This document shows, piece after piece, positions 22,992-52,935 of a stretch of 64,000 bases of DNA. Below the pieces are notes generated by a model. That model made no database searches. It saw nothing but the letters and a program-made list of their open reading frames with translations, and was not told the origin of the DNA. The DNA is taken from the NCBI GenBank assembly GCA_027600665.1, contig JADGJL010000007.1:62001-126000 (forward strand). Direction: 5' to 3'. Made by a program: the position numbers and the translations under genes. Source of the DNA: Irineochytrium annulatum (Eukaryota; Chytridiomycota; Chytridiomycetes; Chytridiales; Chytridiaceae). The first letter of the stretch is position 1. Every line of letters begins with the position of its first letter.

Positions 22992-25900
22992 GTGTTATTA
23001 AAAATTTCAGGCGTGGTCCTGACGGTTGTAGTTGCTGTTACCGTACTGCTCCTGTCAACAATCAGAGAACCCCAATCTGCGGCTCTTCTTGCCCGTCAAG
23101 GTGTTATGGATCTATCGGGCTGGAACCCGGAACAAGACGAGCGGATCAAGCTGGACGGTGAGTGGGAATTTTACTGGAACAAGTTGCTTCCTGTTGAATC
23201 TGCAACTCCGAATCAGGTTGGTCCAACAATAGCACCCGATACATATGCAAAGGTTCCCGGTTCATGGAATCGAATTAAAATGGACGGCGAACGACTGCCA
23301 ACCCACGGCTTCGCCACGTATCGACTGGTGCTCCGAAATGTACCAGTTGAAGGAACGCTGGCTATCAAAAAAATGAACATCCGTTTTGCCAGCGAAATCT
23401 ATATCAATGGCAACAAGCTACTGGAAGACGGACATGCCGTGGAGAAATCAGCGGGATATCGACCGGGAAACTCCCCACAAATCGGCTTCTTTCCTTATCA
23501 TGGCGGTGACATTGAAATTGTGATCCGGGTGGCTAATTATGATTACACGGACGCTGGCATTCCGGGGCCACTCTTTTTCGGCGAACAAGCAGCCATGCTG
23601 AAAAAACATCAAATCAGCACAGCCGTTGAATTCGGCACACTTGCTGTCCTGGCTACCATTTCGATCATATTCCTTATCAGTTACCTGGGGTCTGCGCTCT
23701 ACCGAAACAGAGACGATTCGCTGCTGCTGCTTGGTCTAATCTGTCTGCTGTATGCGCTCTATAACGGCATGATCAGCGAACGTGTGTTATCCATGGTGAA
23801 CACGGAAATCTCCTTTAGCACGCTTTATAAATTAAAAGATTTCTGCTCCGTTGCATGCCTGGGTCTGCTGACCTTTTACTTCTACCGATTCAAAACAGGC
23901 ATCCTGACCAGTCTGCTTACAACGGTAATCCTGATTATCTTCGGAGCTTACTTATGCATGGTTGCGCTCCTGCCTATTTCCATCTACGGACTGGCTGCAC
24001 CTTACGTTGTCGTTATGTACACGTTAATGTTGCTCTGGTTGTTATATCAATGCGCATCACAGTTTCTGACGAGTGAGAAGGGTGATCGGCTGTCTACTTT
24101 CTTGTGGTATGCGGCTCTCTTAAGCATCATGCTGTACTGTCTGGACATTAACCTCTTCTCCATCTCGCTAAAGGAAAATATGAACATCGGGCAGGTCTCC
24201 ATTGTCCTGTTCAGCATCCTGATGTTGTTTCTGGCGGTACTTCGGTTCTTCGAGTCATATCGTACAGTCCGTGCGCTCAAAGATCAGTTGCTCTTGCTGG
24301 ATAAGGTGAAAGATGACTTCCTGTCGAACACCTCGCATGAGCTCAAAACACCGCTGAATGCCATTGTGAACATCAGTGAGAGCCTGCTCAAAGGTGCCGA
24401 AGGTCCGCTTACCAACGAACAGGCGCATAACCTGGCGATCGTGACGGGTAGCGGCAGACGATTAACCTACCTGGTCGATGAATTACTGGATTATTCGAAA
24501 ATGAAACATGGCGACATCCCGCTTTACCGGTCTTCAACCGATCTGTACTCGTTTGTCGAATCCGTCATGCGTATGCACTCCTTCCTGCTTGGCTCGAAAA
24601 AGGTGGAACTCATGAACCACATCCCGGCGAATTTCCCGCCAATCTATGCGGACGGCAACCGACTGATTCAGATCTTGCATAATCTGATCGGTAATGCCGT
24701 CAAGTTCACGGAACAAGGCACGGTAAGCATCCGTGCTGCGGTTGTTCAAGGCAAAGCGGAAATCCGCATTATCGATACCGGTCGTGGCATCGGCAGGACA
24801 AGCTGGAACATATCTTCCTGCCGTTCGAGCAGGAAGCAGATACAGGACCAGTCGTTGCCGGAGGCACCGGACTTGGACTAAGTATTACACGCAAGCTGGT
24901 AGAGCTGCATGGAGGAACCATTCATGCAGAATCGGCACCTGGCATGGGGGCCACGTTCATCCTGACTTTTCCGTTGGCCGATGGCAAAGGTGAGAAACGA
25001 TCCAACGTCAAGCCAATTACCATAGCTCCTACAAGTCATGGTAATCAGTTACTAAGGTTCGAAGAACCAACGATTGTGGAAGGGCATCTCAACGAATGGA
25101 TCATCGTTGTGGACGACGACTCGGCTAATTTACAGACCATAGTGAATCTCTTGAAATTGGAAGGCTACAGTTATGCGGTAACCTCACGCTCCCCTTCTGT
25201 ACTGGATCTGCTCGACCAGCTCCCTGCCGTACATCTGGTCATTGCTGACATTATGATGCCGGACATGTCGGGGTACGAATTGTTGGAACGGATCAGGGAA
25301 CGTTACTCTCCTTCCGAGCTTCCGGTGCTTATGCTGACGGCAAGTAATAAAGCCAACCAGTTGAAGCTGGCTTTGGAGAAAGGTGCCAATGATTTCGTAT
25401 CAAAACCGTTTGAATCAGAGGAATTGCTGGCACGGATCGGCGGTTTGACCCGGATGATAACGTCTGTTCAAGCCGCGCGAGATGCCGAGATCTCCTTTTT
25501 GCGGTCACAGATGAACCCGCACTTTCTGTATAACGCTCTGAATGCCATTGCCGAATTGTGTGTAGATGCGCCGAATCAGGCAGAACAATTGATTTTGCAA
25601 TTATCGAGTTACTTAAGGCGCAGTGTGCACTTCAAACATCTGGACTCCAAAACCAGCCTGATGAACGAACTGGAGATGATCGAAGCATACGTTGCCATTG
25701 AGCAGGCACGCTTTGGCTCACGGCTGGAGGTCATTATCGATGTGGATGCGGACGTGAACCGAAATATGGATATTCCGCCCCTCACGTTGCAACCCCTGAT
25801 CGAAAACGCGATTCGGCACGGGCTAATGTCCAGCATTCGCGGTGGTCGCGTCATATTGTCCATTCGTAATCTGAATGATACGGAAACACGTTTCTCTATC

Positions 25901-26122
25901 GAGGACAACGGAATCGGCATAACCAAGCAAAGAATGGAGGAAATTCGGCAATCCACGGACGGCAGTAACGGCGTGGGAATATGGAATATCTCCAGCCGGT
26001 TGAACCTGCTGTATGGCAGACACCTTCAGATGGAAAGTCTGGACGGCGAGGGAACGCGCATTACATTTGATCTTCCTAATCAACGTATTAGCACAGATGG
26101 GAACGGGGGTTATGAGACATGA
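22992..26122 (+). pseudogene. Hybrid sensor histidine kinase (7TMR-DISM, HisKA, REC, LytS-type kinase), single-base frameshift
   Basis: GTG at 22992 follows AAAGGAG (an upstream TTG at 22941 lacks one). The first frame runs to 24881: signal/TM helix, 7TMR-DISM-type extracellular domain, seven-helix region, HisKA phosphoacceptor (SNTSHELKTPLN) and the start of HATPase. After DTGRGIG the frame changes: the correct continuation QDKLEHIFLPFEQ and the ATP lid GGTGLGLS are read one frame over from 24794. The second frame then gives REC (VVDDDSANL, phosphosite in IADIMMPDMSGYE) and a second, LytS-class kinase core (NPHFLYNALNAI, HATPase to the end). One base is missing within 24792-24794. The intact architecture is that of the 1017-residue paralogue at 48737-51790. 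It overlaps the next gene's ATG by four bases. Confidence 0.85.
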
Positions 26123-27237
26123 TAAAAGTCATCATCGTGGATGATGAGGATCTGTCGCTCAAGCGACTGAATCGTATTTTGACAGAAAGCGGAGAAGTTG
26201 AAGTATGTCGTGCGTTTCACGATCCGGAGGAAGCCTGTGAATACGCGGCAGAGAATAGCTTCGATGCAGCATTTTTGGACATTACAATGCCGCGCATTTC
26301 GGGTATGCACCTCATTGGTGAATTGCGGAAACATCACCCTTTGCTTCCCATCGTGTTGGTGACCGGATATGAGGAATATGCGGTGCAGGCCTTCGACAAA
26401 GAGGTGATCGATTACGTTATTAAACCGGTCACGGCAGAGCGACTGAACCGCAGCATTCAGCGGTTGCAGCAGCAGCTTCACAAATCCGTGACAACGCCAG
26501 GGCCAGCGGTGCCAGAACCGAAACTGAACGTTCGTCTGTTTGGTGAATTCACCGTGTTCGGTGGAACCGGAGCAGATAGCCCCATCAAACTTAGAACGCC
26601 CAAAACGGAAGAGTTACTCGCCTTCTTGTTGTATACCAAGTCAACCACCCGCGATGCATTGGCTGATACGTTGTGGAAGGACCTCAGTCCGCAGAAGGCC
26701 TGGACGAACATCAATTCCACACTGTACTACGTGCGACGTGCCATCGGTGATAACAGTGACGTACCGATCATTCTTAAGGACAGGAATGGTATTCGTATCG
26801 ACCGGGAAGCGATTAACTGTGATCTGTACGAGTTCGAGGTCTTGTTCCGACAGATGCGTCAGGCTTCGGCACATCGCCCCGAGCTCTTCGAGCGGATGGA
26901 CACATTGTATACGGGTGAACTCCTGAAAGGAAGGCATTATGAGTGGGCTTTCGCGTGGTCCAGACAGCTGGAACTGGATTTCCTCATGACGATGGAAACC
27001 GCTGCCCACTATCACGCGAAGAAAGGCGAGACGTTACGGGCGCTGTATTATTTTGAACGTATCCTCCAGATTGATTCGATTCGGGAAGATATTCATCGTG
27101 AGATCATCCTGTTGTATCTGTCGCTTGGACGAAGAACCGAAGCGCAGCGGCAGTATCTTGTTCTGGAGGAACTGCTCAAAGAAGAACTTGGCTCCAGTCC
27201 GGCAGCGGAAATCAAGCAACTGTTGCGACAATCATGA
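26119..27237 (+). CDS. Response regulator: REC, winged helix and BTAD (SARP-like)
   Basis: A 372-residue protein. Receiver domain 1-120 with D9/D10 and the phosphosite in FLDITMP; a winged-helix DNA-binding domain at about 135-225 (LFGEFTVFG, then ADTLWKDLSPQKAWTNINS); then a bacterial transcriptional activation domain (BTAD) of TPR-like helices to the end. Its ATG overlaps the hybrid kinase stop codon, so it is the cognate regulator. The same gene pair occurs at 48737-52935 in the other orientation. Targets are unknown. If the kinase frameshift is real, this regulator may lack its normal input. Confidence 0.9.
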   Translation: MIKVIIVDDEDLSLKRLNRILTESGEVEVCRAFHDPEEACEYAAENSFDAAFLDITMPRISGMHLIGELRKHHPLLPIVLVTGYEEYAVQAFDKEVIDYVIKPVTAERLNRSIQRLQQQLHKSVTTPGPAVPEPKLNVRLFGEFTVFGGTGADSPIKLRTPKTEELLAFLLYTKSTTRDALADTLWKDLSPQKAWTNINSTLYYVRRAIGDNSDVPIILKDRNGIRIDREAINCDLYEFEVLFRQMRQASAHRPELFERMDTLYTGELLKGRHYEWAFAWSRQLELDFLMTMETAAHYHAKKGETLRALYYFERILQIDSIREDIHREIILLYLSLGRRTEAQRQYLVLEELLKEELGSSPAAEIKQLLRQS

Positions 27238-27241
27238 AACA

Positions 27242-27347
27242 GCAAAAAAGCCCATGCCTTGGCATACTGAACTGCTCCTATCGTAGTCTTCTATCGTTTA
27301 CTACGACAGGGAGCCGTTCAGTGTTCCTTTAGGCTTGGGCTTTTTGC
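27242..27347. terminator. Very long imperfect palindrome, bidirectional terminator
   Basis: Two arms of about 45 bases (GCAAAAAAGCCCATGCCT... and ...AGGCTTGGGCTTTTTGC) contain matching blocks ACTGAAC/GTTCAGT, GCTCC/GGAGC and TCGTAG/CTACGA around a 14-base loop. It ends in T-runs in both directions, between convergent genes. It is far longer than needed for termination and may be a dispersed palindromic repeat. Confidence 0.75.
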
Positions 27348-27412
27348 CATAAATGGACGTTCATTCGTCCATAACTGATAATTTTACATCATCGGACAAG
27401 GTCTACAATCAA

Positions 27413-28594
27413 TTACTCATTGATAAGTTTTTCTGTATTAAGGGTAAATCCTTCAATCACGACATCTTCGTCCACTTCAATCATGATGCAACGTCTGCCT
27501 TGATAGTTCACCTGTTTCACATATCTTAGGTCTTGCGGGCTAACCGAAATCGTAGCAACCTTAGTTTCGATCTTGATGGACTTGGACGTAAACTTCGGCA
27601 TAACACTGGTCGCTTTCATCTCATAATTCTTGTTGTCCACGATCGTTTCGAAGGCACGCTCCACTTTCTCTGTTGTCAGATCTTCCACACCACTTGCGGT
27701 CAGTACACGTTCCAGATCTTTATAATCCAGCTTCGGAGGTTCTTCCTCATAGGACTCTTCGTTAATTTCGATAACGCGGTTGATCTCCTCATATACATGT
27801 GCAATGGTGGCTGAATCGAGCTGTTCACCGGCCACTTCCTTGACGATATCCTCGAAGATCGCCCGTTCTTCCAGTGCGGTTACGGATCTTTCGCCATTCA
27901 GTACATTTTCAACAAAATGCGGGTCCGGGAAATTGGATTTCCCTGTGCAATACAGAACACGATTCACATCGGAGTAGTTGTCCGTCACGCTAGGGTACAA
28001 GAATCCTTGCTCTGGCGTGCTTAATTTGATAATCGGATCGACAATAATATTGTATTTGAATTCTCTCTCCACGTAGTCAAACAAGAGCGTTTTCCGTTGT
28101 TTCTCCGTGGAGTTCACGCTGCACAGAATGAAGGGATGGGCGAACACCTCATTCTTCTCACTCTCTTCCGTGGCTTCGTTTCTAGCCTTGGTCGGCAGAT
28201 AATACTGTCCACGCACAAACGTAGCAACCATGTCCCGCTCATACTTGGCATCCACCAGCATTCGATCCACGAGCAACAGCATGAGGTCCTGCCATTCGTC
28301 CGGATCACCTGTGACCAAAGCCTGATGAAGCAGTACCTGAGCCGGGTCCTCCGCCGCTTCCTGGAATTTTAACTCAAACAACTTCTGATCCAAATCACCT
28401 GTCAGCAACTTTTTGAAATTGCCCATGTATAGTTCCTGCTTCTCTCTGTCCACCAGTTCGAATGGGTGACGCTCCCAGTGATAGACCTCGTTGGTTTCCT
28501 TCGTAATATAGACGTTGAGAATATCGTAAATATTCAGTAAATCGTGATCGAGTTTAAACTGCTTGCGTATATGCGCGACTTCTTTTTTATTCAT
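27413..28594 (-). CDS. DUF4317 family protein
   Basis: A 393-residue soluble protein matching the uncharacterised DUF4317 family of Firmicutes from its N-terminus (MNKKEVAHIRKQFK) to its end. It is acidic and has no signal peptide, membrane helix or recognisable catalytic motif. No function is known to me. It is monocistronic here, behind a 226-base leader region that may hold a very short ORF, and ends at the long palindromic terminator. Confidence 0.85.
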   Translation of the reverse strand: MNKKEVAHIRKQFKLDHDLLNIYDILNVYITKETNEVYHWERHPFELVDREKQELYMGNFKKLLTGDLDQKLFELKFQEAAEDPAQVLLHQALVTGDPDEWQDLMLLLVDRMLVDAKYERDMVATFVRGQYYLPTKARNEATEESEKNEVFAHPFILCSVNSTEKQRKTLLFDYVEREFKYNIIVDPIIKLSTPEQGFLYPSVTDNYSDVNRVLYCTGKSNFPDPHFVENVLNGERSVTALEERAIFEDIVKEVAGEQLDSATIAHVYEEINRVIEINEESYEEEPPKLDYKDLERVLTASGVEDLTTEKVERAFETIVDNKNYEMKATSVMPKFTSKSIKIETKVATISVSPQDLRYVKQVNYQGRRCIMIEVDEDVVIEGFTLNTEKLINE

Positions 28595-28717
28595 ATTGGA
28601 TTCGGCAACTCCTTAGATATGTTTCTGGCTTTATTAGTATAAAGGATCGACAGAGAATTTGTTGACTAACTTGTTGCTTGACGGTTAATGGATTTCAGTT
28701 ACACACGCACGTGATAA

Positions 28718-28756
28718 TCACAACAACACAAATAGGGAGACACTCTTTACATGCAT
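28718..28756 (-). CDS. Possible 12-residue leader peptide ahead of the DUF4317 gene
   Basis: On the minus strand AGGAGGTG, a near-perfect ribosome binding site, stands five bases before ATG, opening a 12-codon frame (MHVKSVSLFVLL) and TGA, 124 bases before the DUF4317 start. The strength of the site is unusual for noncoding DNA. I do not recognise the peptide, and no regulatory codon run or attenuator is obvious. It could be chance. Confidence 0.3.
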   Translation of the reverse strand: MHVKSVSLFVLL

Positions 28757-28820
28757 ACGAGCACCTCCTGTATGTGTTACATCCCTGATGTTCTAGTCTA
28801 TCACATTACAGCGATTGCCA

Positions 28821-29528
28821 TTAACATCTTACATATTTACGCTTGAACCCTGTCCGCCCTTTTTCCACTGCCTTTTGGATATTCTCTGAGGCATTCAGAA
28901 GCTTGCTCTTTGGCATGTCCTTGTTCACTTCGACAGGTCCCACGGCCTTGGCCGTCTCCACCGCCTGATCGTGCAACGGTTGATAGGATGTTGCAACGGT
29001 ATACAGGAAGTTGTTCATCGAATATTTCGTTCGTTCCGGAGATTCATGAATCGTCCTTTTCACCCGTTCCAGCATCTCCGTTAGTTTATTCTCAGAAAAC
29101 TCAGCATCCTTTCGACTGCCGAGCAACCAACAGTAACAGCTCCATCCTGCTGACATTTTCAGCTCATCTCCGCTCGCGATCCACTTATCCGAAACTTCTT
29201 GAGCAATATCCGTCTCTGCCAGTGTGACGGCAACGATGAAGTCAGAGATCATGTAAAAATAAGCAGCATCGATCCAACGGTCAAAATCAGCTTCCGTCAT
29301 CACTTCAGGATCGGCAATCACGCCCGCAAAGTACATCGCATCATAATTTCCCGTCGCGTATAGTTGCTCTGCCAAAGGCTGATCCTTTTTGATCCGCTTT
29401 GCCATTGGTTTCATCGCCCCGGTTGCCACGCCAAATAGCGGTTCATGCGCACCATTGGAGATATAAATTTTTTTCGTTCGTTCTTTGCCCAGCGCTTCAA
29501 GCTCCTGCATTACTTCATCCAGATTCAT
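28821..29528 (-). CDS. DNA alkylation repair protein (AlkD/AlkC-like, HEAT repeats)
   Basis: A 235-residue all-helical protein resembling the DNA alkylation repair enzyme family, in which HEAT-like repeats grip damaged DNA and release alkylated bases. The features seen are GVATGAMKPMAKRIKK near the start, an acidic region PEVMTEADFDRWIDAAYFYMISDF, and a C-terminal basic tail (GRTGFKRKYVRC). Some family members are divergent and lack glycosylase activity, so the enzymatic role is not certain. It appears monocistronic. Confidence 0.75.
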   Translation of the reverse strand: MNLDEVMQELEALGKERTKKIYISNGAHEPLFGVATGAMKPMAKRIKKDQPLAEQLYATGNYDAMYFAGVIADPEVMTEADFDRWIDAAYFYMISDFIVAVTLAETDIAQEVSDKWIASGDELKMSAGWSCYCWLLGSRKDAEFSENKLTEMLERVKRTIHESPERTKYSMNNFLYTVATSYQPLHDQAVETAKAVGPVEVNKDMPKSKLLNASENIQKAVEKGRTGFKRKYVRC

Positions 29529-29913
29529 TTGGCAACACTTCCAATCCTATAAATTATATATCTGATCATATCAAACAGAATCTTATGTTTAACGAACTAC
29601 CGATGGAAAATCACACCTTATCCTGTTCGAGCATGATTACCGACCATAGTATTCATAGTATCATTCCCCACAGATTCCTGAAAAGATAGCATAAATTCTG
29701 TGCAGATAGACATTTTTCCTTCCTTAAATGCTTCTACCCATCACTTCTGAACACCTGCCCAAAGTCTGGATTGAAGCAATCATTCCTCTCAGCACAGCTG
29801 AGCAACATATGTCCATGTCCAAGCAACGTTAAGCTATGGCAGGAATCATCGCTCATCGTTTATGTTCAGTTTAGTATCGTTAACGAAATTGAGGAGAGGA
29901 AGGATGCGAGATC
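29529..29913. other. Divergent intergenic region before the GH27 gene
   Basis: These 385 bases carry the promoters of the AlkD-like and GH27 genes. They include a short direct repeat CATAGTAT (twice near 29645-29661) and the motif GTTCAGTTTA-TATCGTTAA close to the GH27 start. I see no open frame or RNA. Confidence 0.4.
29864..29883 (+). promoter_or_regulatory. Candidate AraC-regulator site upstream of GH27
   Basis: GTTCAGTTTA followed after one base by TATCGTTAA. The same two blocks (GTTCGGTTTA, TATCGTTAA) recur between the AraC gene and the carboxylesterase at 32131-32155, separated by six bases. The shared blocks suggest one regulator binds both. Confidence 0.5.
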
Positions 29914-31077: not shown

Positions 31078-31280
31078 TGGCTCAACATCGCCTATGCACC
31101 TCCTGTCAGGTTCCGCTCTCTTCAGACGATGTGGGCATCTACCTTAAACTGATCTCGCGCTCTGCCCAGCAATTTCTGTGCATCGATTGTCTTGGAGTGA
31201 AACTGAACTGTGGACGCGAGCCCATTGAAAAGCTGATACGTTATTTCCGCGAGTCCGGGAACTGCGCCCTGTTCCGTTAA
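31077..31280 (+). CDS. Small zinc-ribbon protein translationally coupled to GH27
   Basis: A 67-residue protein whose ATG overlaps the GH27 stop codon (TAATG). Two knuckles, CTSC and CIDC, are set 33 residues apart and would bind one zinc ion, followed by KLNC and a C-terminal helix ending in FRESGNCALF. The sequence reads as a real small protein and not as a shadow of the hydrolase. I do not recognise a named function. The coupling implies it is made together with the alpha-galactosidase. Confidence 0.7.
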   Translation: MAQHRLCTSCQVPLSSDDVGIYLKLISRSAQQFLCIDCLGVKLNCGREPIEKLIRYFRESGNCALFR

Positions 31281-31282
31281 CG

Positions 31283-32107: not shown

Positions 32108-32130
32108 TTCTACAGCTACCCTGTTCTCGC

Positions 32131-33742: not shown

Positions 33743-33772
33743 GACATGAGGCTTGCCCTCTGACGATATCGT

Positions 33773-43380: not shown

Positions 43381-46300
43381 CTAGATTAGATTCGACTTCT
43401 GTAACAATCTCTGCATGATCGTGGCAATCTCGGCACGTGTAACCTTACCTTTTGGTGCTAATAAAGTTTGGCTGCGCCCCTGCACAAGACCTGACTTCGC
43501 GCTGTCCACTGCACTGCTGCGTGCCCAGGCAGATACAGCAGCTGCATCATTGAATGACTGGAGCGTGGCATCCAAAGGCTCTGCGTTCAGGCTGTCTTTT
43601 AGCCCAGTAATCATCATCGCTTTCGCTAATATGACCATCGCCTGTTCTCTTGTAATGGTTTCGTTAGGATGAAAGGTGCCATCCTCGAAGCCGTTGATCA
43701 GCCCATATGCATGTGCTGTGCGGATAGCACCATTGTACCAATCCTCGGTCTTCACATCCGTAAATGGAGTTTCCCCATTCTCCGGACGAAGTCCCAGACC
43801 ACGAACCATGATTGCGGCGAACTCTGCACGGGTCACAGCTCGATCAGGATTGAAGGTTCCGTTGCCAACGCCCTCCACAATCATACGAGATCCCATATCA
43901 TTTACAGCTTCTTTACCCCAATGATGCATTACATCTGTAAATTGTAATGGATGCCACACTACTGCATATGTGCTATTGGTCAGGCTGTTAATTTGAGCTT
44001 CGTATCGGCCATTGTTTTGACGTACTTTGGTCGGGACATGACGAACTGATCCGTCTGGCTCCACGACAACGCCAGTTGTAATTTTGTTCGGATCTATGCC
44101 TTCTGGCATGGCTATCGTTCTTTCGACATATGCATCGAAGTTTTTTACTTCAACAGACTTGTCACCATAAACGGCATTAACTGTGAAATTAAGCGGCTGA
44201 GCAATCAGAGTTAAATCATTCTGAGCGACTGCGCGCCCTACAATGTCCGATTGAACTGAGGTCGGAGCTGCAATTTCAATCTGTACCTTGATTTCCTGCA
44301 AGTCATTAGACACTCCAACTTGGCTCGCAATCTCCCCAATGCGGATTTGTCCTGCAGGAACAGTGTACGAAGCCTGCTCTGTTTTGAATTCGAGAATAGC
44401 TTGATAATCTTCCATCGTTTTAATCATCTCGCCTGTAAGCTCACCCACAAAAACGTCGTACGTTTGATTAATAGGAATTGTGACAACCGCGTGTTGTCCT
44501 TCCTCTGCCAATCTGTCATTCAGCTTCTGCTGATCTACTACAATCGCCAATGCGGTTTGTTGGTCACGCCGGGATATGATCGCTTGTCCAGCATTTTCCA
44601 CTTTTCCATTAACCAAAATATTGACGCCTGTAGTTGGTGTTGTTGGTGGTGTGACAGGTGTTAACTGTGGGTTTGATGGAGCTTGTGTTACAGGCGGGTT
44701 GGTTGACGGAGCAGAGGCCGCTGCAGGCACAACTGCATTGGACCTAGCCGAATCTGTACTTTTGCCTGCACCGTTAATGGCTTTCACCGTAAACGTATAG
44801 CTTATTCCGTTACTCAATCCCGTTACTGTTATTGGACTAGTACTGCCTGTAATTATCGTATTCCCAGGCGATACAGTCACTTCGTATCCCGTAATTGGAC
44901 TTCCACCATCATGAACTGGCGCTGCAAATCTTACGGTCGCTTGTCCGTTGCCCGATGTCGCTGTCACATCTGTTGGCGATCCCGGAACGCTTGATGGAAT
45001 TACACTTACTTGATTGGAGGCTTCACTAAGCCCTCCCTTATTCTCTGCTTTTACAACAAAGTAATAAGTCTTGCCGTTAACCAACTCAGGAATGGTATAA
45101 GGTGATGATGCCTCGGCTGTGATTTCAACCCTATGATCAGGATCATCATCTGTTGCCATGTAAATTCGGTACTCTACATCGGGTTCCGTTTCCCATTTCA
45201 ACGTGACATGACCATCCCCAGGTTCGGCTGTCAGATTCCGAGGGTTGGCTGGCGCATTAGGCAGATTTACGGCCTGTATTACTTTGAAAGTAACTGGTAC
45301 CATAAGATCTGCTGTCAACGTAACCGTTGCTGTATATGTTCCTGCGGGCAATCCGTCCTTGGCACGGAGAGTGAAATCTGTCTGATCTCCAGCGATCAAT
45401 TCAGCATCCGGCTGCGTAATAACAAAGGCATCCGAATCATGCCCGCTCAGAGAGGCAGATAAATGAACAAGGTTTCCTGTTCCCGTATGCTGAATGGATA
45501 CGCTGTTCGTTTCCTGAGTACCGGATTCATAATCGAGCATGAGCGGTTCCAATGTGCGATCTTCAATTGGAGCAATCGTATACGTTGGAGCTGCTGTCAC
45601 CGTAAGAACCATGCTGCCTTTTTTGCTGATATCTGCTGTTGAGGTCGCGTAAATGGTATATTCCCCTGGCTCGGCATCGGCTTCTACCGTAACATAGCCG
45701 GAATCGCTGACCTTCACCTTGTTGGTTGCATCGCTACTGCTCCACATCACCGTTACATCCGCTCCGCCTACGGTATCAACCGTTGCCGTCAGTTGTCTGC
45801 TCTCTCCCTGCATAAGGCTGTCCGTAATCGGATTAACCGTGACGCTGTTCACGGCCGGTGCATACGTCACCTTAATGGTTGCCGTTGCAACCTTGGTTAG
45901 ATCGTACACGGATGTCGCTGTAATCACATAGTCACCTGGCACGGCATCGGAAGCAACGCTAACATTTCCCATGCTGCTTACGGTTACCTTGTTGCTGGAA
46001 TCGTTGCTCGTCCACATCACGGAAGAATCGGCTCCACCTACCGCAGTTACCGTGGCAGTGAGTTGCTCGGTTCTTCCTTGTGCGACAGAAGCATTTTCCG
46101 GATTGACAGCGATATTGTGAATAGCTGGCGCATACATCACGGTAACGGTTGCCCTTCCCATCTTGCTGCTGTCTTCAATCGATGTAGCTGTTATCGTATA
46201 ATCCCCTGGTACAGCATCCGCTGCAACCGTTACGAAGCCGGTATTACTTACAGAGACTTTGCCGGTTAGATCACTGCTGCTCCATGTTACCTCCGTCGAA

Positions 46301-48516
46301 GCTCCACCGACTGCCTCAACGATTGCCTCTAACTGTGTACCATCTCCTTGCACGATGCTTGCTGGATCAGGCGTAACGATAACTCCGTTTACTGCTGGTG
46401 CATACGTCACCGTAATGGTTGCTGTACCCACCTTACTGCTGTCTACCGTCGAAGTTGCCGTAATGGTGTAGTTCCCTGGCATAGCGTCTGGGGCAACCGT
46501 CACGAAGCCAGTATCGCTTACCTCAACCTTGTGATCCGTATCACTGCTGGCCCATGTCACCGTTGCTCCGGCCCCACCTACAGCGTTTACCGTTGCGACC
46601 AGTTGTCTGCTCTCTCCTTGCATCAAACTGTCGGTATCTGGGCTAACACTAACGCTATTAACAGCTGGTGCATAGGTAACCGTAATGACCGCTGATTGCC
46701 TCTTACCCGTATCATAAGTGGAAGATGCTGTAATGATGTAGTCGCCCGGTGCAGCATCCGATGCTACACTAACCTTCCCCGTTGCATCTACCGTTACTTT
46801 GTTACTGAGATCACTGCTATGCCAGCTTACCGTGTCTGGCGCTCCACCTACGGCAACTACCGTTGCCGTTAACTGGGTGCTCTCACCCTGCATCAGGCTA
46901 TCCGTACTTGGATTAACGGTTATACTCTGAACTGCTGGTGCATATGTCACCGTAACGGTTGATGTAGCTGTCTTGGTACTATCGAACGTGGAAGTCGCCG
47001 TGATGATGTAATTACCTGGTGTTGCGTCCCGTGCAACTGTAACTAAACCCGTAGCATTAACTGCGACCTTGTTCGTTGCATCACTACTGCTCCATGTCAC
47101 CGTTGTTGGCGCCTCTCCTACGGCGTTAACAGCAGCCGATAGTTGCCTGCTTCCACCCTGCATCGTACTTGTCGTGATCGGGCTCACAGTTACACTGGTG
47201 ACGCTTGGTGGAGGCGGCGGCGTGAATTGAGCTGCCCTTATATTTACCACTTTTCTGTCATCCTCGTCCCACACCGCATACAGCGCTCCATTCATTGCTG
47301 TTATGGCAGGACTTGTGGCAGTTTTAGTTGTAAAAACATTCAATCCACCATTCCTTCCATTTTCAGCCAGAACCCATCCATTGCCGTCATATTTTTTCAC
47401 ACGAATCTTAAAAATAGCAATAGCATTACTGATCACTCCGGAATATTCGCCCCAAACGGCATATAATTCATTATTCAGAGTTGCCAGCTCCACTGTGAAG
47501 GTACGAAAATCAGTGCCAACATTAATCCCTGTCTGTCCCCCACCGTCAATACTGGTCCAGTTGTTACCATCGTACTGTTTAACTCGGACTTGATCGTCTG
47601 TTCTACTGATTGGTTCTGTCCATGCCATGTATAAGATATCGTTAATAACAGCAAATGAGGGATTGGTTGGAATAACCGTAGAAGTTATATTTAATCCAAC
47701 CCCACCGTCTGCCAATGACCAGTTTGATCCAGCATATTTTTTGACACGCAACTGATACTTGGCACCGGTCAAATACTCGACCCACGCTACGTATAAATCA
47801 TCCCCCATTACTGTAATGATGGGCGTTGCTGCACCACTACCCGGGTTTACGTTTAATCCCTCTGTTCCGCCCCCATCGAGGCTTGCCCACGTGGTGCCAT
47901 TATACTTCTTCATGCGAATCTTAGCTGCTTCAACCCAAGTTGCGTACAACTCCCCTTTATATGCAGTTAACATGGGAGTACTCGCATTTAATGAGGGACT
48001 TTCATTAATTCCTTCTGTGCTTCCTCCTTCAGCATTTGTCCAGCTCGTACCGTCATATTTTTTGACCCGAATCTGGCCAATAGAAGAAGTTTTCATTTCC
48101 GTCCAAGACAAATATAGAGCGTTATTGTACACGGCGAGGGTCGGAGATACGACATCTTTGGTTAAATCGTAATTCAGACCATATGTTGGGTGACCGCCGT
48201 CAACACTAATCCAGTTTGAGCCATTAAACTTTTTAACTCTGATCTGGCTAATCGTAGGCGTACTCGGAATCGTTTCTTTCCATGCCACATAAATCTCACC
48301 ATTCCATTCCACTATGGCAGGTTTTTCACCCCTCATGGCTGAATTTACATTAATGCCAGTTGCTCCATTCCCATCAATGATCGACCAGCCGGATGCCGCC
48401 GAAGTTACACCGCCCCCAATCACTAAAGATGGTATAAAAAGAATGATGGCTAGAAACAGATGTGCCATTCTTCGAAAATTTCCGTATTTCTTACTTGCTC
48501 CCCCCACTGAAATCAT
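43381..48516 (-). CDS. Large SLH-domain surface protein with propeller-like, Ig-like and FN3 domains
   Basis: A 1711-residue exported protein. The signal peptide ends near TSAASG (about residue 42). About 42-440: seven imperfect repeats of about 55 residues (LYVAWVE then IRVKKYDG then WxxxDGG); the N-terminal GWSIIDGNGATG supplies the missing last strand, as in a closed seven-bladed propeller. About 440-985: six Ig-like (BIG2-type) repeats of exactly 90 residues. Then a beta-sandwich, two FN3 domains, a proline/threonine linker, an unrecognised domain and three SLH domains (TRAEFAAIMVRGLGL, TREQAMVILAKAM, TRAEIATIMQRLL) that anchor it to cell-wall polymer. The ATG at 48516 follows GGAGGGGGAG. 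It probably displays a binding head at the surface; the ligand is unknown. Confidence 0.92.
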   Translation of the reverse strand: MISVGGASKKYGNFRRMAHLFLAIILFIPSLVIGGGVTSAASGWSIIDGNGATGINVNSAMRGEKPAIVEWNGEIYVAWKETIPSTPTISQIRVKKFNGSNWISVDGGHPTYGLNYDLTKDVVSPTLAVYNNALYLSWTEMKTSSIGQIRVKKYDGTSWTNAEGGSTEGINESPSLNASTPMLTAYKGELYATWVEAAKIRMKKYNGTTWASLDGGGTEGLNVNPGSGAATPIITVMGDDLYVAWVEYLTGAKYQLRVKKYAGSNWSLADGGVGLNITSTVIPTNPSFAVINDILYMAWTEPISRTDDQVRVKQYDGNNWTSIDGGGQTGINVGTDFRTFTVELATLNNELYAVWGEYSGVISNAIAIFKIRVKKYDGNGWVLAENGRNGGLNVFTTKTATSPAITAMNGALYAVWDEDDRKVVNIRAAQFTPPPPPSVTSVTVSPITTSTMQGGSRQLSAAVNAVGEAPTTVTWSSSDATNKVAVNATGLVTVARDATPGNYIITATSTFDSTKTATSTVTVTYAPAVQSITVNPSTDSLMQGESTQLTATVVAVGGAPDTVSWHSSDLSNKVTVDATGKVSVASDAAPGDYIITASSTYDTGKRQSAVITVTYAPAVNSVSVSPDTDSLMQGESRQLVATVNAVGGAGATVTWASSDTDHKVEVSDTGFVTVAPDAMPGNYTITATSTVDSSKVGTATITVTYAPAVNGVIVTPDPASIVQGDGTQLEAIVEAVGGASTEVTWSSSDLTGKVSVSNTGFVTVAADAVPGDYTITATSIEDSSKMGRATVTVMYAPAIHNIAVNPENASVAQGRTEQLTATVTAVGGADSSVMWTSNDSSNKVTVSSMGNVSVASDAVPGDYVITATSVYDLTKVATATIKVTYAPAVNSVTVNPITDSLMQGESRQLTATVDTVGGADVTVMWSSSDATNKVKVSDSGYVTVEADAEPGEYTIYATSTADISKKGSMVLTVTAAPTYTIAPIEDRTLEPLMLDYESGTQETNSVSIQHTGTGNLVHLSASLSGHDSDAFVITQPDAELIAGDQTDFTLRAKDGLPAGTYTATVTLTADLMVPVTFKVIQAVNLPNAPANPRNLTAEPGDGHVTLKWETEPDVEYRIYMATDDDPDHRVEITAEASSPYTIPELVNGKTYYFVVKAENKGGLSEASNQVSVIPSSVPGSPTDVTATSGNGQATVRFAAPVHDGGSPITGYEVTVSPGNTIITGSTSPITVTGLSNGISYTFTVKAINGAGKSTDSARSNAVVPAAASAPSTNPPVTQAPSNPQLTPVTPPTTPTTGVNILVNGKVENAGQAIISRRDQQTALAIVVDQQKLNDRLAEEGQHAVVTIPINQTYDVFVGELTGEMIKTMEDYQAILEFKTEQASYTVPAGQIRIGEIASQVGVSNDLQEIKVQIEIAAPTSVQSDIVGRAVAQNDLTLIAQPLNFTVNAVYGDKSVEVKNFDAYVERTIAMPEGIDPNKITTGVVVEPDGSVRHVPTKVRQNNGRYEAQINSLTNSTYAVVWHPLQFTDVMHHWGKEAVNDMGSRMIVEGVGNGTFNPDRAVTRAEFAAIMVRGLGLRPENGETPFTDVKTEDWYNGAIRTAHAYGLINGFEDGTFHPNETITREQAMVILAKAMMITGLKDSLNAEPLDATLQSFNDAAAVSAWARSSAVDSAKSGLVQGRSQTLLAPKGKVTRAEIATIMQRLLQKSNLI
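45577..47196 (-). repeat. Six tandem 270-bp repeats coding for Ig-like domains
   Basis: Each unit encodes 90 residues from S-V/I-x-V-x-P to TYAPAVN, with no length variation between units; only the last ends differently (TAAPTYT). High similarity at DNA level makes unequal crossing-over and assembly collapse possible here. Confidence 0.85.
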
Positions 48517-48687
48517 TACATGTCTCCCCCTCCGCAATATTAATCAGTTGCATTCTACTCAGCATAACGGAGCACACCTTAAAAAAACCTTAAAAAACGA
48601 TGTTATTCGACTTTATTCGACGACATTAATCATACCCGTCCACCAATCCACATTTTCAGTTAACTATCCATCAAATAAATACAAAAA

Positions 48688-48715
48688 GAGCCCCACCGCA
48701 TGTACGATGGAACCC
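48688..48715 (-). terminator. Terminator after the hybrid kinase gene
   Basis: Minus-strand GGGTTCCATCG pairs with CGGTGGGGCTC (several G-U pairs) and is followed by five T residues, 20 bases past the stop. Confidence 0.6.
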
Positions 48716-48736
48716 ATTGATATAACATATGTTCTC

Positions 48737-51700
48737 TTAAGACAGCCCATTAGGAATATGAAAGGCAACGCTCGTTCCATGCCCAGGTTCACTCGTTAGT
48801 ACCAGTGAAGTTCCGTATTCAAATCTCAATCGCTTATCGATATTTCGTAAACCTACTCCTTGCTGGACGGCCGATTCGCTATGTTCAAGTAATATCTTCT
48901 TACGGTCGGGAGGAATTCCGACTCCGTCATCGGATACAACAAATAACCAATCCTCTTCTAATCTCTCCACTATCAATTTCACTGTTCCGCCTTCAATTCG
49001 ATCTCCGATGCCGTGACGAATCGCATTTTCGATCAACGGCTGAAGCAGCAACGGTGGTATCTGTAAACGATATGCCTCTTCAGGAATCTCATATTGGAAG
49101 CAAATACGGTCCCTGAATCTTGCCTGCTCAATCTGTACATAGGTTTGAATAAGCTTGAATTCCTCATCGAGTTCGATGCGTTTATCTGAATTGCTGAACC
49201 GAAAGCTTCCTCGCAAATAATCAGCCAACGCGATGATCATGCTCCGCGCACGCTCTATATCTGTATAACTGGAGGCAACGATACTATTAAGAACGTTATA
49301 TAGAAAATGCGGCTTGATCTGCGATTGAAGGAAAGCCACTTCCATATATACCGCACGTCCCAATGATTCCTTCATGGCAAGCAAACTTCCGATTCGGGCT
49401 TTTAATTCTTCCAAATCAAACGGTTTGGGCAAGTAGTCGTTTGCTCCAACCTGATATGCAGCCACCTTATCCTGTGGTTGAATTGCCGCAGTAACCATCA
49501 ACACGGGCAACTCCAGGAGTGAATAGCGCTTGCGAATTTCTTGACATACTTCGTATCCGGACATGCCTGGCATCATCAGGTCCAGAATGACAAGGTCAAT
49601 TCTGCCCGGTTCATCGATCTGGCGAAGTGCTTCGTATCCATCTTTGACTGCGATGATCCGATAGTCATGGGATTGTAGCGTATCCAGCAAAACCTTCAGA
49701 TTGACATATTGATCATCAACGATCAAAATCGTGCGCTTACCAGCGGCATTCGCAATATACGGTGTAGGAAACGAATACTCGTTCTCCAAAGGTTGAATGT
49801 ATGATGCTGATGAATGGTCCGAGCTAGCTATATTTTCATTATTTGACGTTGCCCGCTGCAGGGTAAACGTGAATGTCGTCCCCACGTCCAGGGTTGAGCT
49901 CACGGATAGTGTCCCCCCTTGCAGATTAATCAGCTGCTTAGCGATAGACAGCCCAAGCCCGGAGCCGCGTTGGCTTACTTCTTCCATGGATTTGAACGGC
50001 TCAAAAATATACGGCATATCCTCCGGATGTATACCCGCTCCCGTATCCTGTACTTCGAATTGCAACAGGCCTTCTTGTTCCTTCCCGGCAACAATGATCG
50101 TTCCGTTCTCTGTGTACTTCATTGCATTGTCCAGCAGATTGCTAATGACCTGACTTAACCTGATTTCATCAGCATAAGCGAGCGGCAAGTCCGCTGGCAC
50201 CTGATTGACGAGTTGAATCTCCTTTTCCGCACTGAGATAAGAGTAGAAACGGATTTGCATCTCTACGACTGAACGGACATCGACTGGCGCCGGATCAATT
50301 CTAAGCTCCCCCTGTTTAAGCTTCGACAAGTCCAGAATGTCATAGACAATCTGAGAAAGCTTCCTGGTAATATCGATCATCAACTGAAGCTTCTCTCGTT
50401 GCCCTGACGTAGGAGGTAACGCAGTATCATCAAGCATAGACCGGGATATGTTCATAACACCATGAAGAGGCGTCTTGAATTCGTGTGAGGTACGTGCGAG
50501 AAAATCATCCTTGTGCTTGTCCGCCTCCATTAACTGACCCGAGAGTTCCTCTATTCTCTGGAATGCGTTTGAGAAGCGGAGCGACATCAATAGTGCAAGC
50601 ATGAGCAGTACAAGAAATGGCTCGACGGGTGGCAGCGAATAGATCGGAACGCCAAAGTAGACGTTTAAGTTCTGGTTCAACACTAGCGCGTTCAAAGCCA
50701 TCGCCGCCACAGCCAGATACCAGCTGCCAGCCACTCTATTTAGAACAGCATATACAAACACATAGGTGGCGTACAACAAAGCTAACGTGACGTACAGTGA
50801 TGTCACAAGGCGAAACGGCCCTGTCGTAATTTGCGTAGCAAAGCCCATATGCAAGAGAAGTAAAGCACCTCCTGATAGTAGTCCTGCCTTCGTAAATCCT
50901 CTATAACTGTAGGGACGAAAAGCAGTATACACATACAAGAAAAATCCTACACCTACCCCAATGGTCAACACCATTTGAATGCGAAAATATAGCCAAAATG
51001 GAAGTGGGCCCAGCGCATCGAACAGCACCCTCTCCCCGCTGATGCTTGTAAACGCTGCAATAAATACACAGACGAGTCCAAATACAACAAGGGACTGATC
51101 ATTCCTGCGCTGAGAAAATAATCCGATAAAATACAGCCCCATGATCAGGAAGGCTGTTAGAGCAATCCAATCGTGTGCTGTCGCGACATCCCGAATTTTC
51201 GCAATTTGGTCAGCCTTTCCAAATTGGATAGACTCTCCGATTCCACTCGTTACCCGGAATTCATGGTTGGCAACTTCGATCACGATATCGTTCCAGCCTG
51301 GCTTTAAAGTGAAATAACTGACATATGGCTTGTTAAGCGCCCAATAATCGTCTTTGTGATCGGGATACCCGCTTGAGCCCACGACTTGCCCGTTGACGAT
51401 AAGCCTATTGCAGATCAATATGGCTGCCGTCTTCATTCCATATATGACGCTATCGTCATCAATTAAAAGCCTCAAACGATACGTTGCCACACCCAACGTA
51501 TCCATCTGTTTGGACCATGACCCGGGCACCTGAATGAAAGAAGGGGCTTCATCTCCCGCTTCCTCAGAGGTGAGGGGATGGCTGAAGAGTAGTCGATTCG
51601 GGTAAAACTCCCATTGCCCGTCCAGCCGGACGACACCCTTCTCCTGAAATGCCCAATTGGTTAAGTCCATGACTCCATTGGCCGCCATCGGCATCGTTTT

Positions 51701-51790
51701 CTTGTTAAAAGTAAAGTATGTTAACAGCATACCGTAAGTCGCGAACAACATTGTCAATGTAATTAGGATCGCAACGATTTTGCGTTTCAT
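48737..51790 (-). CDS. Hybrid sensor histidine kinase with two kinase cores (7TMR-DISM, HisKA, REC, LytS-type)
   Basis: A 1017-residue membrane sensor. Signal/TM helix at 4-25; extracellular 7TMR-DISM-type jelly-roll (about 40-190, WAFQEKGVVRLDGQWEFY); seven helices (about 210-400); HisKA (ARTSHEFKTPLHGVMN) with HATPase to about 650 (GSGLGLSIAKQL); REC (about 690-810, VVDDQYVNL-type start and VILDLMMPGMSGYE); then a LytS/YesM-class core (SQIKPHFLYNVLNSI) with its own HATPase. Two different kinase families in one chain is unusual. The start overlaps the stop of the regulator gene (ATGA). It is the intact paralogue of the frameshifted gene at 22992-26122 and lies next to the SLH gene. Confidence 0.93.
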   Translation of the reverse strand: MKRKIVAILITLTMLFATYGMLLTYFTFNKKTMPMAANGVMDLTNWAFQEKGVVRLDGQWEFYPNRLLFSHPLTSEEAGDEAPSFIQVPGSWSKQMDTLGVATYRLRLLIDDDSVIYGMKTAAILICNRLIVNGQVVGSSGYPDHKDDYWALNKPYVSYFTLKPGWNDIVIEVANHEFRVTSGIGESIQFGKADQIAKIRDVATAHDWIALTAFLIMGLYFIGLFSQRRNDQSLVVFGLVCVFIAAFTSISGERVLFDALGPLPFWLYFRIQMVLTIGVGVGFFLYVYTAFRPYSYRGFTKAGLLSGGALLLLHMGFATQITTGPFRLVTSLYVTLALLYATYVFVYAVLNRVAGSWYLAVAAMALNALVLNQNLNVYFGVPIYSLPPVEPFLVLLMLALLMSLRFSNAFQRIEELSGQLMEADKHKDDFLARTSHEFKTPLHGVMNISRSMLDDTALPPTSGQREKLQLMIDITRKLSQIVYDILDLSKLKQGELRIDPAPVDVRSVVEMQIRFYSYLSAEKEIQLVNQVPADLPLAYADEIRLSQVISNLLDNAMKYTENGTIIVAGKEQEGLLQFEVQDTGAGIHPEDMPYIFEPFKSMEEVSQRGSGLGLSIAKQLINLQGGTLSVSSTLDVGTTFTFTLQRATSNNENIASSDHSSASYIQPLENEYSFPTPYIANAAGKRTILIVDDQYVNLKVLLDTLQSHDYRIIAVKDGYEALRQIDEPGRIDLVILDLMMPGMSGYEVCQEIRKRYSLLELPVLMVTAAIQPQDKVAAYQVGANDYLPKPFDLEELKARIGSLLAMKESLGRAVYMEVAFLQSQIKPHFLYNVLNSIVASSYTDIERARSMIIALADYLRGSFRFSNSDKRIELDEEFKLIQTYVQIEQARFRDRICFQYEIPEEAYRLQIPPLLLQPLIENAIRHGIGDRIEGGTVKLIVERLEEDWLFVVSDDGVGIPPDRKKILLEHSESAVQQGVGLRNIDKRLRFEYGTSLVLTSEPGHGTSVAFHIPNGLS

Positions 51791-52935
51791 TGAAATGTGC
51801 GCCCCGATCCCTCCATCGTGTTCTGAATCAATAACAACGTCTCCTCCTCCAGTTCTGTTCCAAGTTGAATGCGCACGGCTTGCTCTAACTCCTGACTTAC
51901 ACGGTATGCCTCGCTCCGGTTACTGAGTTCCAGATGAATTCTAATCAACTCACGTCCATCGATCTCGGAGTCAGGAACAAGTGACAGTAATCGCTGTAAG
52001 CTATTCGCTGCAAACAAAAGCTTTCCTTGGCTACGATAATACATATACCATTTGCGAAGTGCACGGACATACAACGACTTGATATTCAACTGTCTGGCAA
52101 TTGCCCAGTCAAAATTGCATCCATCCATATAATCTCCGACGTACATCTCGTTCATCTGATCATAATGAAGCTCATTTATGTGCTCTTCCGCCAATATTTT
52201 ATTTAACAATGTCTCGAATTGAGAGACATCTATTGTAATGTCGTTCAGTTCAGCGGAAAACCCCTGATTTCCTTTACGGATATGAATTGCTACACCATGC
52301 TCTGTCAAGCTTCTTCGAAGATAAGAAAGACAGGTGTACAAATACGATTTGGCTTTATCGAGATCGTAACCCGGCCACAACGCCTCTATAATGACAGCGG
52401 CATTTACGCGCTTACCTTCATGATGAATTAGAAATGCACATAGCTCCCGCTCTTTTTTCGTTTTCCATATAACTTCCTTGCCCGTATCGCCTGGTGATAT
52501 GATATGGAATCCTCCGAGAGAAAGAACTGACGGAACTAAAGGCTTATTTTCTTCTGTTAGACTGGACTGCTTGTACAGATCTTTGGTTATCCGTGCCACC
52601 GTATTCTGTAAACGGCTCACCGTAAACGGTTTTAACAGATAGTCGGTTGAATCAATCTCAAACGCTTCTAATGCATACTCGGCATAGGCCGTCGTGAAAA
52701 TGATCGGCAACTCAGGAGAAATGCTTCTTATTCGCCGAGCTGCTTCGGTACCCTTCATACCCGGCATTTGGATATCCAAAAACACAGCATCTATCATGGT
52801 TCGGTTTAAATCTTCCAACGCCTGAAGGGGATTTAGATATCTTCCAGCGATCTCCACATTCCCCATTTGACCAAGCAATATCTCAAGCAGATCTAGTGCA
52901 TCTTCTTCATCGTCAATCAACATGACACGGATCAT
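51787..52935 (-). CDS. Response regulator: REC, winged helix and BTAD (SARP-like)
   Basis: A 382-residue regulator: receiver domain 1-120 (LIDDEEDAL, phosphosite in FLDIQMPG, KPF motif), winged helix at about 140-235 (LGGFHIISPG, IEALWPGYDLDKAKSYLYTC) and BTAD helices to the end. AAGGAG before the ATG at 52935 sets the start; the longer frame to 52998 is rejected. It precedes and overlaps the hybrid kinase, the reverse of the gene order at 22992-27237, where the kinase comes first. Confidence 0.9.
   Translation of the reverse strand: MIRVMLIDDEEDALDLLEILLGQMGNVEIAGRYLNPLQALEDLNRTMIDAVFLDIQMPGMKGTEAARRIRSISPELPIIFTTAYAEYALEAFEIDSTDYLLKPFTVSRLQNTVARITKDLYKQSSLTEENKPLVPSVLSLGGFHIISPGDTGKEVIWKTKKERELCAFLIHHEGKRVNAAVIIEALWPGYDLDKAKSYLYTCLSYLRRSLTEHGVAIHIRKGNQGFSAELNDITIDVSQFETLLNKILAEEHINELHYDQMNEMYVGDYMDGCNFDWAIARQLNIKSLYVRALRKWYMYYRSQGKLLFAANSLQRLLSLVPDSEIDGRELIRIHLELSNRSEAYRVSQELEQAVRIQLGTELEEETLLLIQNTMEGSGRTFQ

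What the first reader, a model, noticed from the sequence alone, without database searches (positions are those of the whole stretch)
22992..52935. Two paralogous kinase/REC-BTAD modules with two kinase cores in one chain
The pairs at 22992-27237 and 48737-52935 share the order 7TMR-DISM, HisKA-HATPase, REC, LytS-class core-HATPase, plus a separate REC-winged helix-BTAD regulator. A protein with two phosphoacceptor types of different families around one receiver could run an internal relay or integrate two inputs. Gene order within the pair is reversed between copies, so this is not a simple block duplication.
Basis: partly seen in the sequence, partly recalled or inferred. Interest (0 to 1): 0.75.

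Follow-up and report, generated by a model that had tools for sequence, protein, structure and literature searches.

The report
Two-kinase sensor controlling surface proteins
A widespread family of Paenibacillus sensors, on which no paper turned up here, carries two different kinases in one chain, the second apparently switched by the first, and seems to control neighbouring genes, often for cell-surface proteins, through its own DNA switch.

Summary
The architecture is real, but common. Module B (48737-52935) is intact. Module A's kinase is broken in this window (two ORFs, 22941-24881 and 24944-26122); a genome 98.9% identical there holds it whole. The same chain is in 328 of 394 genomes of the family, and the HK-receiver-HK-beside-RR topology has been counted in published surveys.

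Best reading: the LytS-type second kinase (HK2) phosphorylates the separate REC-BTAD regulator; HK1 phosphorylates the internal receiver, which gates HK2 through a rigid helix, as in the receiver-controlled kinase LvrB. Evidence: 39-residue receiver-to-HK2 spacing in 313 of 313 sequences; HK2 residues kept where HK1 and receiver decay; relatives with the same sensor and HK2 but no HK1-receiver; HK2-regulator covariation. A TodS-like relay is not excluded.

New here: a SARP-like operator (heptamer direct repeats, 11-bp period, about 10 nt before a -10-like box) beside many modules. For B it is TTTAAGG-N4-TTTAAGG at 48577-48594, once in the whole assembly, before a 1718-aa S-layer-homology protein; exact in 27 of 35 B-type loci and no other fetched locus. 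Other subfamilies show other heptamers with the same geometry. Its function is inferred, not tested.

The parts
22941..24881 (+). Module A kinase, 5' piece: DISM-like/7TM sensor, HisKA, front part of HK1 HATPase_c (broken frame)
   Evidence: open in L153
24944..26122 (+). Module A kinase, 3' piece: receiver, LytS-type His_kinase, HATPase_c
26119..27237 (+). Module A response regulator, REC + BTAD
48737..51790 (-). Module B kinase, 1017 aa, intact: sensor, HK1, receiver, HK2
50309..50512 (-). Module B HK1 HisKA domain (aa 427-494); phospho-acceptor His436 by family convention
49391..49729 (-). Module B internal receiver (aa 688-800); acceptor Asp737 by family convention
49103..49345 (-). Module B HK2 LytS-type His_kinase domain (aa 816-896); His828
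51787..52935 (-). Module B response regulator, REC + winged helix + weak BTAD (open frame reaches 52998)
48577..48594 (-). Predicted module B operator: TTTAAGG-N4-TTTAAGG, direct repeat of 11-bp period
48561..48566 (-). -10-like box TATGCT, 10 nt after the second heptamer
43381..48537 (-). Predicted target: 1718-aa protein with signal-peptide-like start, Big_2, fn3 and three SLH stretches

Best explanation
Each module is a one-input, one-regulator switch for neighbouring genes. The membrane sensor drives HK1 (HisKA type) through a continuous helix from the last membrane segment. HK1 phosphorylates the receiver tethered behind it. Phosphorylation changes the receiver, and its last helix, which runs straight into the LytS-type dimerisation helix, turns HK2 on or off. 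HK2 autophosphorylates on its own ATP and passes the phosphoryl group to the separate REC-BTAD regulator, which binds paired heptamers just upstream of the -10 box of a neighbouring gene, in module B the SLH surface protein. Shown by computation: domains, conservation, fixed spacing, naturally occurring forms with and without the HK1-receiver part, HK2-regulator covariation, operator geometry. Inferred: every phosphotransfer step, the gating step, DNA binding, and the direction of control. In this window module A is broken, and the A-type operator is absent from the assembly.
For: (1) Fixed coupling: receiver Lys789 to HK2 His828 is 39 residues in 313 of 313 kinases (below 80% identity), while the HK1-to-receiver tether has 35 lengths (a motif-only check gives 39 in 285 of the 291 it could read). 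The model has one helix 793-822 from receiver into HK2. (2) HK2 is the constant part: His 534 of 534, N-box Asn 533 of 534; HK1 His 522 of 534; in paralogues that lost HK1 or receiver residues, HK2 His828, Asn922 and Asp954 are kept, and all 9 HK1-His-less kinases that came with their locus have an adjacent regulator. (3) Simple forms: L014 and L403 join the same sensor directly to HK2, next to a REC-winged-helix regulator (BTAD just below cut-off in L014, not found in L403), with an operator of the same period 124 and 73 bp after the regulator gene; P0313 and P0340 match complex relatives in sensor and HK2 alike. (4) HK2 x regulator covariation is the most stable of four pairings (z 2.3-11.8, p <= 0.03 in every setting). 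(5) Operator period 11 with gap 9-11 stands out in three groups. (6) Precedent for receiver-gated kinases: LvrB (PMC13269768).
Against: HK1 x internal-receiver covariation is not stable: absent with 534 sequences, so HK1-to-receiver transfer rests on tethering and hybrid-kinase precedent. In one setting HK1 x regulator scored higher than HK2 x regulator (z 4.4 against 4.0). HK2 x receiver reached p 0.01-0.05 in several settings with 203 sequences, though not with 534. DCA was inconclusive. Of the 12 HK1-His-less kinases 7 keep the receiver residues checked, so front-end decay is only sometimes joint. A fixed linker and a working HK2 do not exclude phosphotransfer from receiver to HK2. The simple forms may descend from complex ones. 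Fixed spacing could partly reflect common descent. 80 of 302 modules have no regulator within 400 bp. The exact operator geometry was found in 68 of 302 modules. No experiment.
Confidence: 0.55

Rival explanations
1. TodS-type relay: HK1 phosphorylates the receiver, the phosphoryl group moves to the HK2 histidine and then to the REC-BTAD regulator. HK2 serves mainly as a phosphotransfer domain that kept kinase activity.
For: Same order as TodS/TodT (transmitter-receiver-transmitter-receiver), where this relay was shown (PMC4321377, PMC3018481; passages read). Acceptor residues are strongly conserved: HK1 His 522, receiver Asp 531, HK2 His 534 of 534, regulator Asp 202 of 203. HK2 x receiver covariation reached p 0.01-0.05 in several settings.
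Against: The receiver is fused to HK2 by a helix of fixed length, which should make access of Asp737 to His828 harder than a flexible tether. HK2 keeps its N-box Asn in 533 of 534. HK2 x receiver covariation is usually the weakest and is absent with 534 sequences. Paralogues with a decayed receiver keep HK2, and one of them with both acceptors lost, L161, has an adjacent regulator.
Confidence: 0.3
2. Two parallel kinases: HK1 and HK2 both act on the REC-BTAD regulator, and the internal receiver is a sink or brake.
For: HK1 x regulator covariation reached p 0.01 in several settings at the looser thresholds, once with z 4.4.
Against: That signal fades when relatedness is controlled more tightly (z 0.2-2.0 at the 0.5 threshold), while HK2 x regulator stays (z 2.3-4.1). 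Simple forms with HK2 alone have a like regulator.
Confidence: 0.1
3. The repeats are ordinary conserved promoters, not binding sites of the adjacent regulators.
For: They lie about where a -35 box would be; no binding has been shown; within B the site could be shared by descent; the reversed A pattern is also fairly common (17 against 31 in 30 genomes).
Against: Exact repeats in diverged flanks, the same 11-bp period and gap with different heptamers in other subfamilies, and few at other periods. BTAD is the SARP output domain (recalled), and SARPs bind heptamer repeats with 4-nt spacers (PMC5930380).
Confidence: 0.12

Closest known systems
LvrB of Leptospira (receiver-controlled histidine kinase; PMC13269768)
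   Same: Receiver directly N-terminal to a kinase core, its last helix continuous with the signalling helix; an upstream kinase phosphorylates the receiver; output to a further receiver. LvrB is among the Foldseek matches of the model (8vc9, rank 31, E 1e-12, but 21.8 A rmsd).
   Different: LvrA and LvrB are separate proteins; here the upstream kinase is in the same chain and the gated core is PF06580. Output here is a DNA-binding regulator, not an anti-sigma factor.
TodS/TodT of Pseudomonas putida (PMC4321377)
   Same: Kinase-receiver-kinase in one chain, with a separate DNA-binding regulator.
   Different: TodS lacks transmembrane regions and has PAS domains (PMC4321377); here a membrane sensor, an HK2 of another family, and no sensor domain between receiver and HK2.
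LytS/LytTR-type systems (e.g. BtsS/BtsR)
   Same: HK2 core is PF06580; regulator REC best matches BtsR/LytR models, below their cut-offs; one relative (L002) has a REC-LytTR regulator.
   Different: HK1-receiver part ahead of the core; REC-BTAD or REC-winged-helix output instead of LytTR.
SARP regulators (PimR, AfsR; PMC5930380)
   Same: BTAD-type output; heptamer direct repeats with 4-nt spacers, 11-bp units.
   Different: Fused to a receiver domain, in Bacillota, next to surface-protein genes.

Membership tests
HK1-RR-HK2 (transmitter-receiver-transmitter) proteins with neighbouring RR | Two kinase cores around one receiver in one chain | tested here: met
   Module B; module A only in the near-identical relative L153
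HK1-RR-HK2 (transmitter-receiver-transmitter) proteins with neighbouring RR | RR gene next door | tested here: met
   Both modules in the window; of 302 distinct modules 206 have one same-strand RR, 11 one on the other strand, 5 several, 80 none
TodS-type phosphorelay | Transfer His1-Asp1-His2-Asp2 through the second kinase | not testable with these tools
   Biochemical; HK2 x receiver covariation is weak, and absent with 534 sequences
TodS-type phosphorelay | Both cores of HisKA type with PAS domains ahead of each (TodS layout, partly recalled) | tested here: not met
   HK2 is PF06580, no PAS hit
Receiver-controlled kinases (LvrB type) | Receiver fused N-terminal to the core, last receiver helix continuous with the signalling helix | tested here: met
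   39-residue spacing in 313 of 313; model helix 793-822
Receiver-controlled kinases (LvrB type) | Receiver phosphorylation changes kinase activity | not testable with these tools
   Biochemical
LytS-type kinases | PF06580 domain above curated cut-off | tested here: met
   83.1 and 80.4 bits against 25.2
SARP-type regulators | BTAD domain above cut-off | tested here: inconclusive
   A 55.7 bits (met), B 14.2 against 22.1 (not met)
SARP-type regulators | Binds heptamer direct repeats of 11-bp period | not testable with these tools
   Repeats found beside the modules; binding not tested

The most novel reading that the evidence does not exclude
A kinase-to-kinase cascade in one polypeptide: an HK1-receiver cassette, gained or lost several times between sensor and LytS-type kinase, converts a one-step two-component system into a two-kinase cascade without changing its regulator; and each paralogous subfamily addresses neighbour genes, often for surface proteins, by its own heptamer operator of common geometry.
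Probability: 0.45. Interest if true: 0.7.

Novelty: new variant of a known kind. Interest (0 to 1): 0.55.

Why it matters
One group holds natural versions of the same system with and without the HK1-receiver cassette, with HK1 decayed, and with regulators of different output type. That makes the question of why complex sensor kinases exist directly testable. The predicted operators give an immediate reporter assay for a large family (up to 13 matches in one genome) on which no paper was found here, and point to S-layer-type surface proteins as what some of its members control.

Tried and rejected
Mean-field DCA over 203 kinase-regulator pairs gave no clear partner signal (effective depth 113). 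Circular-shift tests of interface windows were mixed (MIp p 0.034 and 0.028 for HK2 x regulator, 0.008 for one HK2 x receiver window, DCA p 0.076 at best). Covariation for HK1 x receiver, seen in part of the settings with 203 sequences, vanished with 534, so I do not use it.

A finer operator-to-recognition-helix code was tested and not supported: heptamer distance follows regulator relatedness in general (65 modules: r 0.80 with REC, 0.73 with the helix; helix given REC only 0.09, p 0.03), and with one regulator per heptamer (16) there is no correlation (p 0.30). The eye-catching helix differences are therefore only clade differences.

The AraC gene (21924-22871) as part of module A: rejected; good matches (79-99%) beside the module were found only in five genomes with close A-type modules. 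Block duplication: rejected. Rfam and tRNA scans of the window were empty. A first run of the permutation script failed on a missing column and was rerun.

Literature: by title and start of abstract, searches listed no paper on this Paenibacillus family or on a REC-BTAD operator in Bacillota; only open-licence papers are held, so this does not show that none exists. Seen: PMC13269768 (abstract, sections 8 and 11, passages), PMC4558063 (section 21, passages), PMC3018481, PMC4321377 and PMC5930380 (passages). Others: listings only. Names such as acceptor His/Asp and N-box are family knowledge, recalled and matched to alignment columns.
Full report
What is there. Module B is as described: a 1017-aa chain with sensor, HisKA/HATPase (HK1), receiver and PF06580/HATPase (HK2), and a regulator gene in front of it. 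Module A has the same parts, but its kinase is broken in the window inside HK1's ATP-binding domain. An open copy exists in a genome whose A locus is 98.9% identical (L153), so the break is recent or a sequencing error. The window lies in a 26.9-Mb assembly of 1082 contigs, too large for one bacterium of this kind; the module B kinase is 100% identical to a protein cluster named after Paenibacillus sp. FSL R5-0517.

How common. With one profile at E <= 1e-150 the chain is found in 328 of 394 genomes of the family, 90 of 398 of the class sample and 28 of 398 of the phylum sample (some matches are partial, and at most two candidates per genome were scored), and 4 to 13 times in each of 24 genomes that I picked as large and rich in first-look candidates. 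The topology is in print: hybrid kinases with two transmitters were counted (51 of 4650), and TRTR loci proposed as relays, by PMC3018481, and PMC4558063 lists 97 HK1RRHK2 proteins in Firmicutes, 69 next to an RR; whether these include this family was not checked. I found no paper on this family itself.

Which kinase serves the regulator. From 302 distinct modules, 206 have one same-strand regulator within 400 bp, 11 an opposite-strand one, 5 have several, and 80 none. The regulator's receiver is of the BtsR/LytR sort by best model, below those models' cut-offs, as expected of a LytS-type partner, while its output domain varies among the few scanned: BTAD, winged helix only (L087), LytTR (L002). 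Simple relatives L014 and L403 carry the same sensor joined straight to HK2, with no HK1 and no receiver, next to a REC-winged-helix regulator. A third, L013, looks alike but is frame-broken in its record; a fourth kinase, L404, has a more distant sensor. Another simple set (P0288, P0291, P0298, P0309, P0313, P0315) is 39-46% identical to A-type sensors and 58-65% to A-type HK2, and P0340 is 38% and 68% identical to L401 in the two parts. The close HK2 match begins at the helix ahead of HK2; BLAST also ran a weaker alignment of the simple proteins into HK1, which has a like ATP-binding domain. On a tree of 170 HK2 cores (116 from complex chains), simple forms fall in several places among complex ones, with uneven branch support, so the HK1-receiver part was probably gained or lost more than once; the direction is open. 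Covariation of the first receiver helix with the two dimerisation domains, with the receiver column block shuffled among relatives, is strongest for HK2 x regulator (z 11.8, 4.2, 2.8 at three thresholds) and lies at 2.3 to 4.1 with other weights and windows. HK1 x regulator falls to z 0.2 at the tightest threshold and 0.7-2.0, but is higher at looser ones, once above HK2 (4.4 against 4.0). HK1 x internal receiver was seen in part with 203 sequences but not with 534; HK2 x internal receiver is weak with 203 (z 0.7-3.0) and absent with 534.

How HK1 reaches HK2. In 313 kinases below 80% identity the distance from the receiver's lysine to the HK2 histidine is always 39 residues, and from the last membrane helix to the HK1 histidine 32 in 303, while the tether from HK1 to the receiver takes 35 lengths. 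A check by motif alone gave 39 in 285 of 291 readable cases; 6 lacked the lysine motif, and 22 had no single histidine motif. The AlphaFold2 model (mean pLDDT 80.3, pTM 0.50, so domain placement is uncertain; both junction helices drop to about 57-65 in confidence near 421-440 and 811-830) has one helix 389-453 from membrane into HK1 and one helix 793-822 from receiver into HK2. Conservation: HK2 His 534 of 534 and N-box Asn 533 of 534; HK1 His 522; receiver Asp 531. In some paralogues (such as P0238, P0239, P0242, L161, L287) HK1 and receiver residues are lost together while HK2 His828, Asn922 and Asp954 are kept; 7 others lost the HK1 histidine with the receiver residues checked kept, two of them with one further HK1 change. 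A published structure series of LvrB shows how a receiver switches a kinase core through such a helix (PMC13269768). I therefore favour gating over transfer, at modest odds.

What it controls. In 21 of 35 B-type loci, and in 2 of 267 others (both from L006), a downstream same-strand frame matches the N-terminal part of the window's 1718-aa SLH protein. The stretch between shows TTTAAGG-N4-TTTAAGG, with both heptamers exact in the window and all 13 loci aligned while most of the rest has diverged (the 13 were chosen among loci with a match). It occurs once in the window, and in 32 of 444 loci, all of them B-type (27 distinct and 5 refetched); 3 more B-type loci have it with one mismatch, one with two, 4 have nothing close, and the best of 266 readable non-B flanks has two mismatches. 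In 30 whole genomes, chosen mostly for having B-type modules, there are 28 matches against 6 for the reversed pattern, and by my count 22 of the 28 lie within about 300 bp downstream of a B-type kinase; the assembly of the window has exactly one (with places). A-type loci carry TGTTTAT-N4-TGTTTAT: 31 matches in 30 genomes chosen mostly for A-type modules, against 17 for the reversed pattern, so this one is less specific, but by my count 23 of the 31 lie within about 1.3 kb of an A-type module. A blind scan for any exact heptamer repeat followed by TANNNT found 20 of 55 A, 27 of 35 B and 21 of 212 other modules at period 11 and gap 10; at the other periods from 8 to 15 no gap from 6 to 14 exceeded 2, 2 and 5. 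Over the 362 complex-kinase loci, refetched ones included, the rate per 100 kb is 4.84 at period 11 and 0.51-1.10 at periods 9, 10, 12 and 13; the 68 control loci give 0.89 at period 11 and 0.30-0.79 at the others. The simple modules L013, L014 and L403 each have one period-11 site, 66, 124 and 73 bp after the regulator gene; L404 has none; two period-12 sites lie kilobases away. These numbers count sites, not independent origins. Downstream frames often start with a hydrophobic, signal-peptide-like stretch (score 1.8 or more: A 20 of 21, B 28 of 29, others 12 of 21, two of these being the module's own kinase; no background set was compared). Of ten downstream frames scanned, most of them cut by the locus end, Pfam finds SLH in L003, a trypsin-like domain in L145, GLUG, Big-like or NHL repeats in four others, weak matches in two, and nothing in two. 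In the 'other' group 11 of 40 sites face the module's own genes, which suggests autoregulation. The geometry matches the SARP operators of Streptomyces: heptamers with 4-nt spacers, 11-bp units (PMC5930380).

Module A in this lineage. Four genomes with the AraC gene beside module A at 93-99% identity (loci L153, L144, L149, L258; genomes G135, G085, G115, G150) have no exact A operator anywhere, and neither has the window's assembly; nine other genomes with A-type modules at 78-96% and no AraC match at their locus (G083, G084, G086, G088, G122, G125, G131, G132, G140) all have one or more. G136 has both AraC and operator. So the linked target may have been lost in the window's lineage, and the broken kinase would fit a decaying module, if it is not a sequencing error.

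Limits. All functional steps are inferred. Loci were taken from the best matches and from genomes with many copies, so fractions do not describe a random sample, and many loci are from close relatives. The B and A classes were defined by identity (>=50% to P0001, >=43% to P0126).

Noticed in passing
window, whole: The window is a Paenibacillus-like contig in a 26.9-Mb assembly of 1082 contigs, so the assembly is probably mixed or a contaminated eukaryote.
   Followed up: partly
22941-26122: Frame break in the HK1 ATP-binding domain of module A; an intact copy exists in a near-identical genome.
   Followed up: partly
21924-22871: AraC-type regulator beside module A in five close genomes; four of these and the window's assembly lack the exact A operator.
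   Followed up: partly
18541-21814: Lacto-N-biose phosphorylase (PF09508) next to a GH88 gene, divergent from the AraC gene.
   Followed up: no
L004, L005, L007, L008, L011, L012 and others: About a quarter of the two-kinase chains (80 of 302) have no regulator gene within 400 bp; their partner is unknown.
   Followed up: partly
L005:11042-11605, L012:11060-11599: A 180-188 aa frame without Pfam match begins at the stop of regulator-less kinases.
   Followed up: no
L358, L381: Tandem pairs of two-kinase genes.
   Followed up: no
P0226, P0238, P0239, P0242, L161, L165, L169: Paralogues with decayed HK1 and receiver residues but HK2 His828, Asn922 and Asp954 kept: natural test cases.
   Followed up: partly
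L405-L410: Standalone 5TMR-LYT kinases, whose relatives are about 47-59% identical to A-type HK2, sit beside receiver regulators; the three scanned (L405, L406, L410) are REC-LuxR.
   Followed up: partly
L014:11546-16657: A 1704-aa frame follows the operator of the simple Aquibacillus module; not examined.
   Followed up: no
G362:C1:838735, G376:C1:1201804: A second B operator about 42 kb from the module in two genomes; target not examined.
   Followed up: no
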